Shown piece by piece: positions 8,968 through 35,623 of a stretch of 35,623 nt of DNA (its first letter is position 1; each line of letters begins with the position of its first letter). The position numbers and the translations under genes are program-made. Origin of the DNA: Candidatus Eiseniibacteriota bacterium (GTDB lineage: Bacteria; Eisenbacteria; RBG-16-71-46); contig JANYBS010000157.1 in NCBI GenBank assembly GCA_025360715.1, positions 1 to 35,623 of the forward strand, in the 5' to 3' direction. A model generated the notes under the pieces. The model worked only from the letters and a program-made list of their open reading frames with translations. It made no database searches and had not been told where the DNA came from.

Positions 8968-11449
8968 CGAAGCCGGGGCACCGGCCGCCAAGAAGAAGGC
9001 GACAAAGAAGACTGCCACGCGCAAGGCGCCGGCCAAGAAGGGCGCGCTTGCCGCGACCGGCACTGCGCCGAAGGTGCGCGCGAAAGCTGGCCGCCGTTCG
9101 GCGAGCGCGTCCCCAGCGGCGGAGGAAGAAGAGATCGACGAAGCCGCGCTCGACATCAGTGTGGGCTCCAAGGCCGCGGGCAAGAACCTGGTCATCGTCG
9201 AGTCGCCCACCAAGTCGAAGACGCTGAACAAGTTCCTGGGCAAGGACTTCATGGTCATGGCCTCGAACGGCCACGTCATGGACCTGCCCAAGAGCAAGCT
9301 CGGCGTGGACATCGACCACGACTTCGAGCCGGTCTACGAGATGATCGCATCCAAGAAGGCGATCATTGCCAAGCTGCGCGCCGCCGCAAAGTCCGCGGCC
9401 ATGATCTACCTGGCGCCCGATCCTGACCGCGAGGGCGAGGCGATCGCGAGCCATCTGGCGATGCTGCTCAAGGGCTCCAAGGGCCCGATCCAGCGGCTCA
9501 CGTTCAATGAGATCACCGAACGCGCCGTGACCGAAGCGCTGAGCCATGCGCGCAAGATCGACGTGAACCTTTACAACGCCCAGCAGGGCCGCCGCGTGCT
9601 CGATCGCTTGGTGGGGTACAAGGTCAGCCCGTTCGTATGGACGACGGTCAAGTACGGCCTGTCGGCCGGCCGCGTCCAGAGCGTGGCGCTGCGCTTGATC
9701 TGCGAGCGCGAGGACCTGATCCGCGCGTTCATGCCCGAGGAATACTGGACGATCGAGGTCGACTACGAAACGGAGACCGCCAAGCCCGAGACCTTCACCG
9801 CGCGCCTCGTGCGCGTGGGCGAAGAGAAGCTCGATGGCGGGCACCTGCGCGGCGACGCGGCAGGCGAGCGCGCGGCCGCGCTGGGCGAGGAACTCGCCCA
9901 GGCCAAGGCGCGCATCACCGGCATCGAGGTCAAGCCGCGCCGCAAATCGGCCGTGCCGCCGTTCATCACCAGCACGCTGCAGCAGACCGCCAGCAACCGC
10001 TATGGCTTCACGAGCCAGCGCACCATGCAGGTGGCGCAGAAGCTCTATGAAGGCATCGAGGTCAAGGGCGAAGGCAGCGTCGGCTTGATCACCTACATGC
10101 GTACCGACGCACCGCGTCTGTCGAACGAAGCGCTCGTCGAGATCCGCGAATGGCTCGGCAAGGAATACGGCCCCGAGTATGTGCCCGAGAAGCCGAATAC
10201 CTTCAAGCTCAAGAAGGGCGCGCAGGATGCGCACGAGGCGATCCGGCCCACGAGCATCGCGCGGACACCGGCATCGCTGCGGCCGTTCCTCACCGACGAA
10301 CAGTTCAAGCTCTACGATCTCATCTGGAAACGCGCCGTGGGTTCGCAGGCGACGCCGGCCGAGTACGACATGACCACGGTCGACATCGAGGCGGGTCGTC
10401 TCGGGCTGCGCGCCTCGGGCAGCGTGCTGCGATTCCCGGGCTGGCTCAAGGTTTACGGGCGCGACGAGGACGATGAAGACGAAGAGGGCCGCCTGCCGGA
10501 GCTGCAGCAGGGGACTTCGCTGCACGTGGCCAACGCGCCGATCTCGGATGAGTCCGAGACGCCGCTGCGACCCGAGCAGCACTTCACCTCGCCGCCGCCG
10601 CGGTACACCGACGCGTCGCTCATCAAGGAGCTCGAAGCCCAGAACATCGGGCGCCCGAGCACCTACGCCACGATCGTCTCCACGATCACCAAGCGTGATT
10701 ATGTGGAGCGCGAGGGCCGTTCGCTCAAGCCCACCGACCTCGGCATGCTCGTGACCGGGCTGCTGGTCGATGTGTTCCCCGACGTGTTCAATGTGAAATT
10801 CACCGCGGCGATGGAAGACGAGCTCGACGAGGTGGAAGAGGGCAAGCGCGAGTGGCACTCGGTGGTGCGCCAGCTGTGGGATCCGCTCTCTCGCGACCTC
10901 GAGAACGTGAAGAAGAAGACGAAGGAGATCAAAGAAAGCCTGCAGAAGCCCACGGACATCACCTGTCCATCGTGCGGGCAGCACAAGCTGGTCAAGAAGT
11001 TCGGCCGCAATGGCGCGTTCCTGGCGTGTCCGGGCTACCCGGACTGCAAGCACACGCAGCCGCTCGATGCGTCCGAGCTGCCCGTGCCGGTCGAGGGCAC
11101 CTGCGACCTCTGCGGCTCAGGCCTGGTCGCGCGCAACGGTCCCTTCGGCCGCTACATCCACTGCGTGCGCCGGCCGGACTGCAAGTTCACCAAGCCGTTC
11201 ACACTCGGCGTGAAGTGCCCCAAGTGCGGTGAAGGCGAGATCGCCGAGAAGCGCAGCCGCAAGGGCAAGATGTTCTTCTCATGCACGCGCTATCCGCAGT
11301 GCGACTACGCGATCTGGGATCGTCCGCGTCCGCAGCCATGTCCCAACTGCAACGCGCCATTCCTGGTCGAGAAGGTTGCGAAGTCCGGCACGAGCCTGCA
11401 GTGCGTGGCGTGCAAGGCCCGCTTCCCGCTCGAGACGGCAGGTGCGTGA
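8942..11449 (+). CDS. topA: DNA topoisomerase I with Lys/Ala-rich N-terminal tail and four C-terminal zinc ribbons
   Basis: NLVIVESPTKSKTLNKFLG, DPDREGEAIASHL, GRVQSVALRLI, GLITYMRTDAPRLS, GRPSTYATIVSTI; four CxxC...C zinc ribbons at the C-terminus. Confidence 0.97.
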   Translation: MATSKSRTDEAGAPAAKKKATKKTATRKAPAKKGALAATGTAPKVRAKAGRRSASASPAAEEEEIDEAALDISVGSKAAGKNLVIVESPTKSKTLNKFLGKDFMVMASNGHVMDLPKSKLGVDIDHDFEPVYEMIASKKAIIAKLRAAAKSAAMIYLAPDPDREGEAIASHLAMLLKGSKGPIQRLTFNEITERAVTEALSHARKIDVNLYNAQQGRRVLDRLVGYKVSPFVWTTVKYGLSAGRVQSVALRLICEREDLIRAFMPEEYWTIEVDYETETAKPETFTARLVRVGEEKLDGGHLRGDAAGERAAALGEELAQAKARITGIEVKPRRKSAVPPFITSTLQQTASNRYGFTSQRTMQVAQKLYEGIEVKGEGSVGLITYMRTDAPRLSNEALVEIREWLGKEYGPEYVPEKPNTFKLKKGAQDAHEAIRPTSIARTPASLRPFLTDEQFKLYDLIWKRAVGSQATPAEYDMTTVDIEAGRLGLRASGSVLRFPGWLKVYGRDEDDEDEEGRLPELQQGTSLHVANAPISDESETPLRPEQHFTSPPPRYTDASLIKELEAQNIGRPSTYATIVSTITKRDYVEREGRSLKPTDLGMLVTGLLVDVFPDVFNVKFTAAMEDELDEVEEGKREWHSVVRQLWDPLSRDLENVKKKTKEIKESLQKPTDITCPSCGQHKLVKKFGRNGAFLACPGYPDCKHTQPLDASELPVPVEGTCDLCGSGLVARNGPFGRYIHCVRRPDCKFTKPFTLGVKCPKCGEGEIAEKRSRKGKMFFSCTRYPQCDYAIWDRPRPQPCPNCNAPFLVEKVAKSGTSLQCVACKARFPLETAGA

Positions 11450-12350
11450 GGCGCTCGAGCGCTTCCTGAGCGAGTTCGCGGCGAGTCGCCGCGGCTCCCC
11501 TCACACCATCGCGGCGTACCGGCGCGACATCACCGCGGTACTCGATTTCGCCGCGGGCGAGGGTAAGCCGGTCGCGCCCGGGCAGTGGGATCGCTTACTG
11601 CTCGAGCGTGCCACACGTGAGCTCTACCGCACGGGCCACGCGGCCACGAGTACTTCGCGCGCACTGGCCGCGTGGCGCAGCTTCGGGCGCTTCTGCGTGC
11701 GCCGCGGCATTCTGGTCACCGATCCCGCTCGCACGCTTGCATTCCCGCGCCGCCCGAAGCGCCTGCCGCGCACACTGCCGCGCTTGGACTTGAACGACGC
11801 GCTCGATCGCCTGGGCGCGCAGGCGGCGGCGGCGCCGGGCGCCGATCCCACGCTGGCGCGCGATCGCGCATTGCTGGAGCTCACGTATTCCGCGGGCCTG
11901 CGGCTCTCCGAGTTAGTGGGCCTCGTGCGCGGCGACCTGGATCGCGTCGGGCTGCTGTTGCGAGTACGCGGCAAGGGCCGCAAGGAGCGCATCGCGCCGT
12001 TGGGCGCGCGCGCACTGGCCGCGCTCGATGCTTACTGGAGCGAACAGGGCCGCATCGCGGGTGCCGCGTCGGAACCCGTGTTCACGGGCCGCGCGGCGGG
12101 TGGCCGCTTGGCCGGCCGCACCGTACAGCGCATCGTCGGTACGCGCTTGGCGCAGGTGGCCGGCGGCCTGGGTGTGACGCCGCATGCGCTGCGGCATTCC
12201 TTCGCAAGCCACCTGCTGGATGCCGGAGCCGACTTACGCGCGATTCAAGAGTTGCTCGGCCACGCGTCGCTAGCCAGTACGCAGGTCTATACCCACGTCA
12301 CGCGTACGCGCCTGCAGCAGGCCTACGCGCAGGCGCATCCGCGTGCGTAG
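11442..12350 (+). CDS. xerC: Tyrosine recombinase XerC
   Basis: GTG start overlaps the topA stop by 8 nt; AGLRLSELVGL, GKGRKERIAPLG, HALRHSFASHLLDAGADLRAIQELLGHASLASTQVYTHV (R-H-R-H-Y catalytic set). Confidence 0.92.
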   Translation: MREALERFLSEFAASRRGSPHTIAAYRRDITAVLDFAAGEGKPVAPGQWDRLLLERATRELYRTGHAATSTSRALAAWRSFGRFCVRRGILVTDPARTLAFPRRPKRLPRTLPRLDLNDALDRLGAQAAAAPGADPTLARDRALLELTYSAGLRLSELVGLVRGDLDRVGLLLRVRGKGRKERIAPLGARALAALDAYWSEQGRIAGAASEPVFTGRAAGGRLAGRTVQRIVGTRLAQVAGGLGVTPHALRHSFASHLLDAGADLRAIQELLGHASLASTQVYTHVTRTRLQQAYAQAHPRA

Positions 12351-21169: not shown

Positions 21170-22984
21170 GTGGGCTCGCTGAGCGAAAAAATCGCGCATC
21201 TCCCGCTTGTTCCGGGGGTTTACCTGTTCAAGGACGCCCTTGGCGAGGTGCTCTATGTCGGCAAGGCCAGCAGCCTCGCCAGCCGGGTCCGGAGCTACCT
21301 CAAGCCGGATACCGAGCGCCCGCGCATGGCCGAGATGATGGAGCGCGCGGTGGACGTGGACACGATCCTCACCGACACCGAAGCCGAAGCGCTGTTGCTC
21401 GAGTCCACGCTGATCCGCCAGCACCGGCCGCACTTCAACGTGATGCTCAAGGACGATAAGAGCTTTCCGTTCGTGAAGCTGAGCATGGCGGACGAGTTCC
21501 CGCGGCTGTCGGTCACGCGCCGGGTGCGCGACGACGGCGCCCGCTACCTGGGCCCGTTCACCGACGTCAAGAACCTGCGCCGGACGCTTCGCGAACTGCG
21601 CCGCATCTTCCCGCTGCGCACGTGCCGAAACTTCGCGACCTACCAGAAGCAGGACCGGCCGTGCCTGTACTACCACATCAAGCGCTGCGCGGGGCCTTGT
21701 TACAGCCGTGCGCGTGTGGATCCCGCGCGGTACCGCGAGATGGCCGAGGGGCTCCTGCTGTTGCTGGCGGGGCGCAATGAAGAACTACTGGCGCAGCTGC
21801 GCGCCGAGATGGAGCGCGCGGCGCAGAGCCGCCACTACGAGACCGCCGCGCAGCGCCGCGACCAGATCCGGCTCATCGAGTACGCGCAGGTGCCGCAGAA
21901 GATGGTCACCAACGATCCGCGCGACACCGACATCGTGGGTATCGCGCGCGATGGCGCGCGCGCGGCGATCGCGGTGCTGTTCGTGCGTGGCGGCCGCGTG
22001 ATCGGCAAGGACGTGCGGATCGTGCAGCAGGCCGAAGGGATGGACGAGGCGGCCCTGCTCGAGACGTGGGTCTCGCAGCACGCGCTCGCGCGCACCGACC
22101 TGCCACGGCGGCTGCTCGTGACCGCGCTGCCGGAGTCGGCGCCGGTGCTGGTCGCCGCGCTCTCGGCGCGCGCCGGGCACACGGTCGAGATGTTCGCGCC
22201 GCTGCGGGGCCGCGGCCGACGCCTGCTCGAGGTGACCGAGAAGAACGCCGCTGCCGCGTTGGCCGAACAACGCATCGGCCGGCGCAAGCGCTTCTCGCCG
22301 GCGATCGCGGCTCTGCAGAAGGAACTCGGCCTGGCGAGCCCGCCGCATCGCATGATCTGCTTCGACATCTCGAACTTCGGCCCCGACCAGGCGGTCGCGG
22401 CGGTCGTGGCGTCGGAGGACGGCCAGCCGCGCAAGGGGCTTTATCGCCGCATGCGCATCCATCGCCCGGGTCCCGATGACTTCGCCATGATCGGCGAGGC
22501 GGTCGAGCGTTACTGGACGCGTGTGGAATCCGGCGAGCTCCCGCGCCCCGACCTAGTGGTGATCGACGGTGGGCAAGGGCAACTGGCGGCGGCGCGCGCG
22601 TCGCTCGACAAGGTGAGCACACGCGGCGTCGAGGCGATCGGACTGGCCAAGCGCGAAGAACTCATCGTGCGCGAGGGCCTGCCCGATCTGCGTCTTCCCC
22701 GGCGCTCGGCGGGCTTGCGCGCGCTGCAGCGCCTGCGCGACGAGGCGCACCGCTTCGGCCTGGAGTACCACCGCAAGCTGCGCGCCCGCGCGCGCATCGG
22801 CAGTGCGCTCGATGCGGTGCCCGGCGTAGGCCCCGCGCGGCGCGCGAAGCTGCTCAAGGCCTTCGGCTCGGTCGCAGCGCTGCGCGAAGCGAACGTGGAG
22901 CAGGTCGTCGAGCGCGCCCAGGTCCCCGCCGCACTCGCGCAGCGTGTACTCGAGCACCTCCAGAGCCAGGAAGGTGCCGCATGA
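21170..22984 (+). CDS. uvrC: Excinuclease ABC subunit C
   Basis: IAHLPLVPGVYLFKDALGEVLYVGKASSLASRVRSYL; YHIKRCAGPC; ICFDISNFGPDQAVAAVV; PDLVVIDGGQGQL; C-terminal HhH AVPGVGPARRAKLLKAFGS. Start chosen as the GTG after GGAGG. Confidence 0.95.
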   Translation: MGSLSEKIAHLPLVPGVYLFKDALGEVLYVGKASSLASRVRSYLKPDTERPRMAEMMERAVDVDTILTDTEAEALLLESTLIRQHRPHFNVMLKDDKSFPFVKLSMADEFPRLSVTRRVRDDGARYLGPFTDVKNLRRTLRELRRIFPLRTCRNFATYQKQDRPCLYYHIKRCAGPCYSRARVDPARYREMAEGLLLLLAGRNEELLAQLRAEMERAAQSRHYETAAQRRDQIRLIEYAQVPQKMVTNDPRDTDIVGIARDGARAAIAVLFVRGGRVIGKDVRIVQQAEGMDEAALLETWVSQHALARTDLPRRLLVTALPESAPVLVAALSARAGHTVEMFAPLRGRGRRLLEVTEKNAAAALAEQRIGRRKRFSPAIAALQKELGLASPPHRMICFDISNFGPDQAVAAVVASEDGQPRKGLYRRMRIHRPGPDDFAMIGEAVERYWTRVESGELPRPDLVVIDGGQGQLAAARASLDKVSTRGVEAIGLAKREELIVREGLPDLRLPRRSAGLRALQRLRDEAHRFGLEYHRKLRARARIGSALDAVPGVGPARRAKLLKAFGSVAALREANVEQVVERAQVPAALAQRVLEHLQSQEGAA

Positions 22985-23988
22985 GCCGGCCGCGCAAAGG
23001 CACGACCGGCGAAGGCACGTCAGAGGCCAAGGCCGAAAGGGATCAGGCCGGCGTGCCGGAGGCACCTGTGGGCGCGAAAGAACGCGTGCCGGAGGTACGC
23101 CTTCTGTTGGCCAAGGACTCGTGGCTCGACGAAGTGCAGAAGGGCCGGCGGTTGAGCCCGCGCACCGTCGACGCTTACCAGCGCGACCTGGCGGACTACA
23201 CGGCGTTCGCCGCCACCCATCGACTCGCCGACTGGATCGAGGCCACGCCGACTTTCGTCGATGGCTACTTCGCCTCGCTGCTGCGCCGCGGCCTCGCATC
23301 GGCCACGGTCGCGCGCCGCCGCTCCACGCTGCGCGGCTTCCATGCGTTCCTCGCGCGCGTGGGACATCGCAGCGATGATCCCCTTGCGCTCCTGCCCGCG
23401 CCGCGGCGCGAGCGCAAGCTGCCGCACGCGCTCACGCGGGACGATGTGGAACTGCTCCTGGCGCAGCCCCAGGGCGAGTCGCCCGTGGCGCTGCGCGACC
23501 GCGCGATGTTCGAACTGGCCTACGCCTGCGGCTTGCGCGTCTCCGAACTGGTGGGGCTCGAGCTCGCGCAGGTGGACATGAGCGGGAAGGTGCTCATGGT
23601 CACGGGCAAGGGCGACAAGCAGCGCGTGGTACCGTTCGGGCGGCCTGCTCAGCATGCGCTGCGCGAGTGGCTTGAGCGTGGACGCGAGTTGCTGGCCACC
23701 AGACAGCGTCATTCGCGGGTGTTCACCAACGCTCGAGGCGGGATGCTCAGCCGCATGGGATACTGGAAGATACTGCGCGGCCATGCGAGGCAGGCGCAGA
23801 TCGCTGCGCACGTGCACCCGCACGCGCTGCGGCATTCGTTCGCGACACACTTGCTGGAAGGCGGCGCCGACTTGCGTGTGGTCCAGGAGCTCCTGGGACA
23901 CGCCTCGGTGACGACGACAGCAATCTACACGCATCTGGACCGCAGTTATCTGCGCGAGGTGCACAAGCAGTTCCATCCACGTGGATGA
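22981..23988 (+). CDS. xerD: Tyrosine recombinase XerD
   Basis: ATG overlaps the uvrC stop; SPRTVDAYQRDLADYTAF, YACGLRVSELVGLEL, GKGDKQRVVPFG, HPHALRHSFATHLLEGGADLRVVQELLGHASVTTTAIYTHLD; about 40-aa N-terminal extension. Confidence 0.9.
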   Translation: MSRPRKGTTGEGTSEAKAERDQAGVPEAPVGAKERVPEVRLLLAKDSWLDEVQKGRRLSPRTVDAYQRDLADYTAFAATHRLADWIEATPTFVDGYFASLLRRGLASATVARRRSTLRGFHAFLARVGHRSDDPLALLPAPRRERKLPHALTRDDVELLLAQPQGESPVALRDRAMFELAYACGLRVSELVGLELAQVDMSGKVLMVTGKGDKQRVVPFGRPAQHALREWLERGRELLATRQRHSRVFTNARGGMLSRMGYWKILRGHARQAQIAAHVHPHALRHSFATHLLEGGADLRVVQELLGHASVTTTAIYTHLDRSYLREVHKQFHPRG

Positions 23989-24074: not shown

Positions 24075-24719
24075 ATGACGAAGTCGCTGAGAGTGCTGTG
24101 CCTGACCGCGTTGCTGGGGATCACTTTCAATGCGTGCGCGCATGCAGCGAGCATCGTGCTGCCGCGCGCCGGCCAGGTCGGCATCGGTATCGATGGCCAG
24201 TATGGCTCCCTGCTCAAGAGCGGCGGCTTGGGCGACGAGTTCGGCGCCGGTCCCGGGCTTGCGGTGCGGCTGCGATATCGCATGCGCTATGAGCGGGCGA
24301 TCGGCCTGTCGTTCCAGACGCAGAACCTGGACTCGCGCGAGCACCTGCGGCCTTCACCGGCTGGCGCGTTCCTTGGCGGGGTACAAGCGCAGGACACCAC
24401 GAACACTCGCGACCACCTGGTACTGACCCTGGCCGGCTTCGACATCTTCCAGATGTTCGACACGCGTTCGAAGAGCACCAAGTGGGTCAGTGCCGGCATC
24501 GGCCTGGCGCAGGTCTCGTCGCGATTGAGCAACAAGGACGTGCAGTACCCGATCGCGGGCGATGGCATGTACCTGAGCGCCGGCGCGGGTCTGGAGAAAT
24601 TCTTCTACCGCAGCTGGGCGTACGACCTGAACACGCACTATCTGGCGGTCTTCCACGATGGCAAGCTCAACCACGACCTGCAGGCGTCCATCGGCATGAT
24701 CTTCTACGTGGCCTACTGA
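24075..24719 (+). CDS. Outer-membrane beta-barrel-like protein
   Basis: MTKSLRVLCLTALLGITFNACAHAA signal peptide; QVGIGIDGQYGSLL, GMYLSAGAGLEKFFYRSWAYDLNTHYLAVF, terminal strand SIGMIFYVAY; GGAGGAG SD. Confidence 0.75.
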   Translation: MTKSLRVLCLTALLGITFNACAHAASIVLPRAGQVGIGIDGQYGSLLKSGGLGDEFGAGPGLAVRLRYRMRYERAIGLSFQTQNLDSREHLRPSPAGAFLGGVQAQDTTNTRDHLVLTLAGFDIFQMFDTRSKSTKWVSAGIGLAQVSSRLSNKDVQYPIAGDGMYLSAGAGLEKFFYRSWAYDLNTHYLAVFHDGKLNHDLQASIGMIFYVAY

Positions 24720-26134
24720 TGGCACTCCAGCCCCTGACCCTGGCGTTCCATGGCGCGGCACGGACGGTGACCGGGTCGCGGCATCTCATGCGCTTCGGGG
24801 AGCGCCGATGGTTGTTCGACTGCGGGCTCTATCAGGGCCATCGCGATGAGGCCGATCGCATCAACCGCGCATTCGCGTTCGCGCCGGGCGAACTCGATGC
24901 GGTGATCATCTCGCACGCGCATCTGGACCACACGGGTAATCTCCCCACGCTCAGCCACGAGGGTTTTCGCGGACCCATCCATCTGACTTCGGGCACTGCG
25001 GACCTCTCGCGCTTCATGCTCCAGGACAGCGCGTTTCTCATGCAGAAGGATGTCGAGCACGTGAACCGTGTCCACGGCAAGAAAGGTCACCCGCGCACGC
25101 CGCTTTACAAGATGGCCGATGTCGAGGACACGTTGGCGCGTTTCGTCACGCACGACTACCACACGCCGTGGCAGCCCTTCGATGGCGTGAACGTGCAGTA
25201 CCACGACGCGGGCCACATCTTGGGCTCGGCGATGGCCACGTTCGAGTTCACGTCCGAGGGCCGCTCGCTGCGAGTGTGCATGGGCGGTGACCTGGGCCGG
25301 CCGGGGCGGCCGATCCTGCGCGATCCTGAGCGTCCGCCGGGGCCCGACGTGCTGGTGCTCGAGAGCACGTATGGCGACCGCCTGCATGGCAATGAGCGCG
25401 ACACCAACGCAGCGCTCGCCGAAGTCATGACGCGCACGATCGCGCGCGGCGGGCGGGTGATCGTGCCGGCATTCGCAGTGGGACGCACTCAGGAGCTGGT
25501 GGCCGTGCTGCACATGCTCATCGACATGGGCCGCGTGCCCGATGTGCCGGTGTTCGTCGACAGTCCCATGGCGCGCAACGCCACATCGGTCTACAAGCGT
25601 CACCCCGAGTGCTTCGACGACGACACGCGCGATCTACTCGCGCATGGCGGCGGCACGCCGTTCGGTTTTCACCGCTTGCACTACATCGAGAGCCCCGAGG
25701 AGTCGCGCGCGCTCAACGACTTCCGCGATCCGTGCATCATCATCTCGGCCTCGGGCATGTGCGAAGGCGGCCGCGTGGTGCATCACCTTCAGCATGGACT
25801 CGGCGATCCGAAGAACACCGTTTTGTTCGTGGGCTTCCAGGGCGAAGGCACCTTGGGGCGCAGGTTGCGCGACGGCGCCGAGACCGTGAACGTGTTCGGC
25901 GAGCCGGTGCGCGTGCGCGCCGAGATCGCCAGCCTCGACGGCTTCAGCGCACATGCCGACCAGAAGGAGATGCTGGACTGGGTACTGGCGCTGGATCCGT
26001 TGCCGAAGCGCATCTTCCTCGTGCACGGCGAATTGCCGGTGCAGAAGGTCTTCGCCGCGCTCTTGCAGGAAAAGACCGGCGTCGATGTGCGGATCCCCGA
26101 GCGCGGCGAGGAGTTCGATCTGTGGACGAGCTGA
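24719..26134 (+). CDS. Metallo-beta-lactamase / beta-CASP / RMMBL ribonuclease-type protein
   Basis: HAHLDHTG (MBL motif), DAGHILGSAM, FVDSPMA, ISASGMCEGGRVVHHL, SLDGFSAHADQKEMLDWV (RMMBL), LVHGE; TGATG overlap with the upstream stop. Confidence 0.92.
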   Translation: MALQPLTLAFHGAARTVTGSRHLMRFGERRWLFDCGLYQGHRDEADRINRAFAFAPGELDAVIISHAHLDHTGNLPTLSHEGFRGPIHLTSGTADLSRFMLQDSAFLMQKDVEHVNRVHGKKGHPRTPLYKMADVEDTLARFVTHDYHTPWQPFDGVNVQYHDAGHILGSAMATFEFTSEGRSLRVCMGGDLGRPGRPILRDPERPPGPDVLVLESTYGDRLHGNERDTNAALAEVMTRTIARGGRVIVPAFAVGRTQELVAVLHMLIDMGRVPDVPVFVDSPMARNATSVYKRHPECFDDDTRDLLAHGGGTPFGFHRLHYIESPEESRALNDFRDPCIIISASGMCEGGRVVHHLQHGLGDPKNTVLFVGFQGEGTLGRRLRDGAETVNVFGEPVRVRAEIASLDGFSAHADQKEMLDWVLALDPLPKRIFLVHGELPVQKVFAALLQEKTGVDVRIPERGEEFDLWTS

Positions 26135-35436: not shown

Positions 35437-35464
35437 ATGTCGCATAATATGTATTATGTAAACC
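35437..35464 (+). other. dif: Candidate XerC/XerD dif site (chromosome dimer resolution site)
   Basis: ATGTCGCATAA (XerC arm) TATGTA (6-bp centre) TTATGTAAACC (XerD arm). Compared from memory with E. coli dif GGTGCGCATAA-TGTATA-TTATGTTAAAT and B. subtilis dif ACTTCCTAGAA-TATATA-TTATGTAAACT. AT-rich island in very GC-rich DNA. Confidence 0.9.
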
Positions 35465-35623
35465 TGTCGATAACGCGCCGATACGGCGCCCCGGTCGTGG
35501 TCGCCCTCACGGGCCCGGCCGCGCCTGTTCGATGGGCCACGCTCCCGCGTCGGGCGAAGCGCCGGCGAAATGCCGTTGCCACCGGGCCGGTGTCCGTGAA
35601 CTCCACCAGTCCGTGCTCGGATC
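35454..35623 (-). CDS. Possible C-terminal end of a minus-strand CDS running into the window, stop codon inside the dif XerD arm
   Basis: Open minus frame from the window edge: SEHGLVEFTDTGPVATAFRRRFARRGSVAHRTGAAGPVRATTTGAPYRRVIDRFT*; GC-rich third positions in the distal part. No start codon in the window, so absent from the ORF track. Confidence 0.35.
   Translation of the reverse strand, partial: SEHGLVEFTDTGPVATAFRRRFARRGSVAHRTGAAGPVRATTTGAPYRRVIDRFT

What the first reader, a model, noticed from the sequence alone, without database searches (positions are those of the whole stretch)
35437..35464. Canonical-looking dif site: the window probably reaches the replication terminus
The 28-bp sequence ATGTCGCATAA-TATGTA-TTATGTAAACC has the 11-6-11 XerCD layout. 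From memory, its XerD arm matches the B. subtilis dif XerD arm at 10 of 11 positions, and the inner XerC arm CGCATAA is identical to E. coli dif. The inner arms form CATAAT-ATGT-ATTATG. It is an AT-rich island in otherwise very GC-rich DNA, just outside the last gene. No ORF or standard annotation type would flag it.
Basis: partly seen in the sequence, partly recalled or inferred. Interest (0 to 1): 0.85.

Follow-up and report, generated by a model that had tools for sequence, protein, structure and literature searches.

The report
Chromosome dimer resolution site (dif)
This is a genuine dif site, the 28-base sequence where two Xer enzymes cut joined sister chromosomes apart, in an uncultured Candidatus Eisenbacteria relative; the site itself is ordinary, but the genes for both of its enzymes lie within 24 kb of it.

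Summary
It is a dif site. In 20 family genomes the core motif occurs once in 15 and never twice, with no hits to the reversed control pattern. Only the two arms are conserved; the centre and the flanks vary. Where contigs continue past dif in relatives, gene strand flips at the site (left 112+/30-, right 15+/135-) and GC skew drops, so it marks the replication terminus. XerC, XerD and an FtsK gamma domain are all encoded in the genome. XerD lies 5-23 kb upstream of dif on the same strand in 22 genomes of 8 families, and searching there uncovered divergent dif sites that motif searches had missed. The linkage is not universal: it is absent in one more distant genome. Shared gene order explains it most simply. 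Verdict: a new member of a known kind, with an uncommon but probably passive arrangement.

The parts
35437..35464 (+). dif site, 28 bp (XerC arm left, XerD arm right)
   Evidence: single copy in genome; once per genome in relatives; only these bases conserved
35437..35447 (+). XerC-binding arm ATGTCGCATAA (outer 2 bases variable, inner part nearly invariant)
   Evidence: 34 distinct dif sequences compared; assignment to XerC by alignment with E. coli dif
35448..35453 (+). central region TATGTA, 6 bp, variable between genomes
   Evidence: information content 0.2-1.0 bit at its first four positions, about 2 bits in the inner arms
35454..35464 (+). XerD-binding arm TTATGTAAACC, best conserved half
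   Evidence: TTATGT invariant in 34 sequences, which the search pattern itself required; 10/11 to B. subtilis dif
22981..23988 (+). XerD recombinase gene, 11.4 kb upstream of dif, same strand
   Evidence: TIGR02225 330.5 bits, cut-off 329.6; R-K-H-R-H-Y catalytic residues read in the translation
11442..12350 (+). XerC-like recombinase gene (ORF could start at 11229), 23 kb upstream of dif
   Evidence: TIGR02224 280.4 bits against TIGR02225 244.2, below the XerC cut-off of 335; start chosen by codon score
5501..32368 (+). conserved gene block leading to dif: SecA, TopA, XerC, DapF, DapA, DapB, UvrC, XerD, beta-CASP nuclease, SNF2 helicase, TPR protein, GH57; mostly + strand
   Evidence: Pfam, same order in relatives

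Best explanation
The 28-mer is the chromosomal dif site of a Candidatus Eisenbacteria-type bacterium. XerC binds the left arm and XerD the right arm; when recombination has fused the sister chromosomes into a dimer, FtsK brings two dif copies together at the septum, its gamma domain activates XerD, and two successive strand exchanges over the 6-bp centre separate the monomers. Shown here: sequence, single copy, conservation, terminus-type strand polarity, and presence of XerC-like, XerD and FtsK-gamma genes. Inferred from E. coli and B. subtilis: binding, order of strand exchange, FtsK control. The linkage of xerD (and here xerC) to dif is most simply inherited gene order in a stable terminus-proximal block.
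For: Single copy. Once per genome in 15 of 20 family genomes and in 10 of the 10 more complete ones, reversed-pattern control 0. Arms conserved while centre and flanks diverge. Gene strand flips at dif in three long contigs, Fisher p about 3e-35. GC skew left/right +0.029/0.000, +0.015/-0.001, +0.021/-0.014; in G007 the cumulative maximum is 118 bp from dif. KOPS-like GGGNAGGG 30:11 left, 7:18 right, p=0.0007. Two full-length Xer genes and FtsK_gamma at 90 bits. Divergent dif sites found downstream of XerD in genomes where simpler patterns failed.
Against: No binding or recombination data. The own contig ends 159 bp past dif, so polarity was tested in relatives only. G003 and G016 show a weak skew change, with cumulative maxima 48 and 19 kb from dif. 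Skew and gene strand are not independent. Genome-wide ori-ter position untested.
Confidence: 0.96

Rival explanations
1. The site is an attachment or plasmid-type Xer site (cer/psi or IMEX remnant), not the chromosome's own dif.
For: Integrated elements that use Xer carry dif-like sites; contigs end unusually often just right of dif.
Against: One copy, not two; 6-bp centre; same place between the same housekeeping genes across families.
Confidence: 0.02
2. Chance AT-rich inverted repeat, or a terminator or operator.
For: Arm matches to E. coli or B. subtilis dif as good as this are expected by chance in a genome this size.
Against: Near-invariant arms in 34 distinct sequences, once per genome, unrelated flanks.
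Confidence: 0.01
3. It is dif, and the xerD-dif linkage is kept by selection (for example local supply of recombinase or coordinated gene dosage at the terminus), not by passive synteny.
For: XerD 5-23 kb upstream, same strand, in 22 genomes of 8 families, while genes between them partly differ. PMC3025954 reports xerD usually near the origin.
Against: Neighbouring housekeeping genes keep the same order too. G049 has dif 27.9 kb into one contig and both Xer genes on another.
Confidence: 0.1

Closest known systems
Chromosomal dif/XerCD systems of E. coli and B. subtilis (PMC3025954, PMC5357621, PMC2731167)
   Same: 11-6-11 layout, inner arms, better conserved XerD arm, low G+C, intergenic, terminus strand switch, two Xer proteins, FtsK gamma
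   Different: xerD and, in some families, xerC lie within about 25 kb of dif; PMC3025954 reports xerC mostly near dif and xerD near the origin
XerS/difSL of streptococci and XerH/difH of epsilon-proteobacteria
   Same: recombinase gene can be genetically linked to its site
   Different: those use one recombinase, and difSL is an atypical 31-bp site; here two recombinases and a standard 28-bp dif

Membership tests
chromosomal dif (XerCD type) | 28 bp, 11-6-11, conserved inner arms | tested here: met
chromosomal dif (XerCD type) | one copy per chromosome, intergenic, low G+C | tested here: met
chromosomal dif (XerCD type) | lies at the strand-bias switch of the terminus | tested here: met
   in three relatives; genome-wide position not tested, since the only one-contig relative is N-joined
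chromosomal dif (XerCD type) | genome encodes XerC and XerD with catalytic residues | tested here: met
   the XerC-like protein is below the TIGR02224 cut-off, best assignment only
chromosomal dif (XerCD type) | FtsK with gamma domain | tested here: met
chromosomal dif (XerCD type) | XerCD-dependent recombination at the site | not testable with these tools
   needs biochemistry
difSL/XerS single-recombinase system | one Xer recombinase and a 31-bp site | tested here: not met
   two Xer genes, 28-bp site; XerS model only 72-92 bits, cut-off 267

The most novel reading that the evidence does not exclude
In this bacterial class the linkage of xerD (with xerC in some families) to dif is maintained by selection, so that recombinase production or dosage is tied to the terminus in a two-recombinase system.
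Probability: 0.1. Interest if true: 0.45.

Novelty: new member of a known kind. Interest (0 to 1): 0.3.

Why it matters
It fixes the terminus and gives a 28-bp dif profile for a group known mostly from fragmented environmental genomes (the library searches, turned up no dif paper on Eisenbacteria), so contigs can be oriented and candidate Xer-using elements sought. The xerD-dif linkage differs from the trend reported in PMC3025954 and can be tested when closed genomes appear.

Tried and rejected
Genome-wide GC skew on the one-contig relative CP070702/G032: its sampled stretches carry runs of N and the skew is scrambled, so it was discarded, with its 104 kb XerD-dif distance. Rfam and tRNA searches of the window found nothing. 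An IMEX at dif was considered as the cause of the contig ends: in G033 two contigs overlap by 87 bases around dif, which places the branch 17 bases left or 47 bases right of the matched motif rather than at dif's edges, so an element inserted at dif is not indicated there. A second contig carrying the window's right end was looked for and not found. A tRNA-like stretch right of dif in G003 is not called by ARAGORN.

Full report
The sequence ATGTCGCATAATATGTATTATGTAAACC is at 35437-35464 as stated. The window is a whole contig (C11) of a 4.29 Mb draft genome in 253 contigs, and the contig ends 159 bases after the site. The genome has one copy with up to 3 mismatches. Named records with the same motif are mostly Candidatus Eisenbacteria MAGs, and several coincide in contig length and position with members of the window's own family and class.

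Is it more than chance? By itself, similarity to E. coli or B. subtilis dif is not compelling: arm matches as good as these are expected about 21 and 1.2 times in such a genome. The relatives decide. The core motif CGCATAA-N6-TTATGTNAA (1 mismatch allowed) occurs exactly once in 15 of 20 family genomes and in all 10 of the more complete ones, with no hits to the reversed pattern. Over 47 genomes of the class, 27 match at 1 mismatch. When the sites are aligned, the arms are nearly invariant, the 6-bp centre varies, and the DNA on either side is unrelated. The search patterns themselves fix the inner arm bases, so the informative parts are the outer arm bases that were left free (TGT before CGCATAA, AACC after TTATGT), which are also conserved, and the sharp loss of similarity beyond base 28. 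This is the conservation pattern described for dif, with the XerD half best conserved (PMC2731167).

Terminus position. The own contig stops at dif, so the test was made in three relatives with dif inside long contigs. Genes left of dif run 43+/15-, 46+/12- and 23+/3-; right of dif 5+/39-, 7+/46- and 3+/50- (pooled Fisher p about 3e-35). GC skew changes from +0.029 to 0.000 (G003), +0.015 to -0.001 (G016) and +0.021 to -0.014 (G007); in G007 the cumulative maximum lies 118 bp from dif, while in G003 and G016 the curve is flat to the right and peaks 48 and 19 kb away. KOPS-like GGGNAGGG octamers reverse as well (30:11 left, 7:18 right, p=0.0007). Skew, octamers and gene strand are not independent, but all agree. 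A genome-wide curve was not obtained: the one-contig relative is joined across runs of N.

Machinery. The window holds a XerD gene (22981-23988, TIGR02225 330.5 bits, cut-off 329.6) and a second Xer gene that fits XerC better than XerD (11442-12350, 280 against 244 bits). Both translations keep the R-K-H-R-H-Y catalytic residues. The genome also encodes an FtsK gamma domain at 90 bits. The expected parts of a XerCD/dif system are therefore present; that they act together is inferred.

Linkage. XerD lies upstream of dif on the same strand and contig, 5-23 kb away, in 22 genomes of 8 families (in G009 only the XerD C-terminus is on the contig). XerC is on the same contig in 11 of these, in families f1, f8 and f11; in G020, G023, G024, G027 and G036 it is on another contig. 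The linkage was used as a prediction: looking downstream of XerD revealed divergent dif sites missed by the first patterns in G024, G040, G042 and G046, and a weaker candidate in G023. Gene order explains much of this: SecA-TopA-XerC-Dap genes-UvrC-XerD-beta-CASP nuclease-SNF2-TPR-GH57 is kept within the family, and XerD-SNF2 (often with GH57) in other families. On the other side LeuS usually follows dif within 60-230 bp, facing it. The linkage has limits: in MAG173-P120 (G049) dif is 27.9 kb into one contig and both Xer genes are on another. A Xer gene near dif is also seen outside the group: in a Melioribacteraceae genome a XerC-like gene lies 10.7 kb upstream of dif.

Comparison with what is known. 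PMC3025954 predicted dif in 578 of 592 single-chromosome genomes it tabulates and reports xerC mostly near dif and xerD near the origin. In streptococci the single recombinase XerS is linked to difSL (PMC5357621). The present site is a standard 28-bp dif in a group for which the library searches returned no dif paper; the xerD linkage is uncommon against that background but is most simply conserved synteny.

Noticed in passing
window 35465-35623; also G002, G004, G005, G010, G011, G033, G036, G040, G042, G046: Contigs end within 800 bp on the XerD-arm side of dif in 11 genomes against 1 on the XerC side (binomial p 0.006, threshold chosen after seeing the data). LeuS, the usual neighbour, is then found on another contig (not found in G011; G033's is on its partner contig). 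Cause unknown: strain variation, hard-to-assemble DNA or inserted cargo.
   Followed up: partly
L061, L059, L054, L046, just right of dif: In four genomes homologous ORFs of about 290-315 codons on the + strand begin at or run through the right edge of dif, between dif and (where the locus extends) leuS; possible coding overlap with dif.
   Followed up: no
G033: C107 20567-20591 and C207 47-71: The apparent second dif copy is best read as a contig overlap of 87 bases (the contig names begin with k87), not a duplication.
   Followed up: partly
window 24482-26134: Beta-CASP nuclease next to XerD that scores 403 bits to the type VII CRISPR Cas14 model (cut-off 800) and 318 to archaeal aCPSF1 (cut-off 580): a bacterial aCPSF1-like protein, not a Cas protein on this evidence.
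   Followed up: no
window 11229-12350: The XerC-like protein scores well below the XerC cut-off, so this lineage's XerC is divergent.
   Followed up: no
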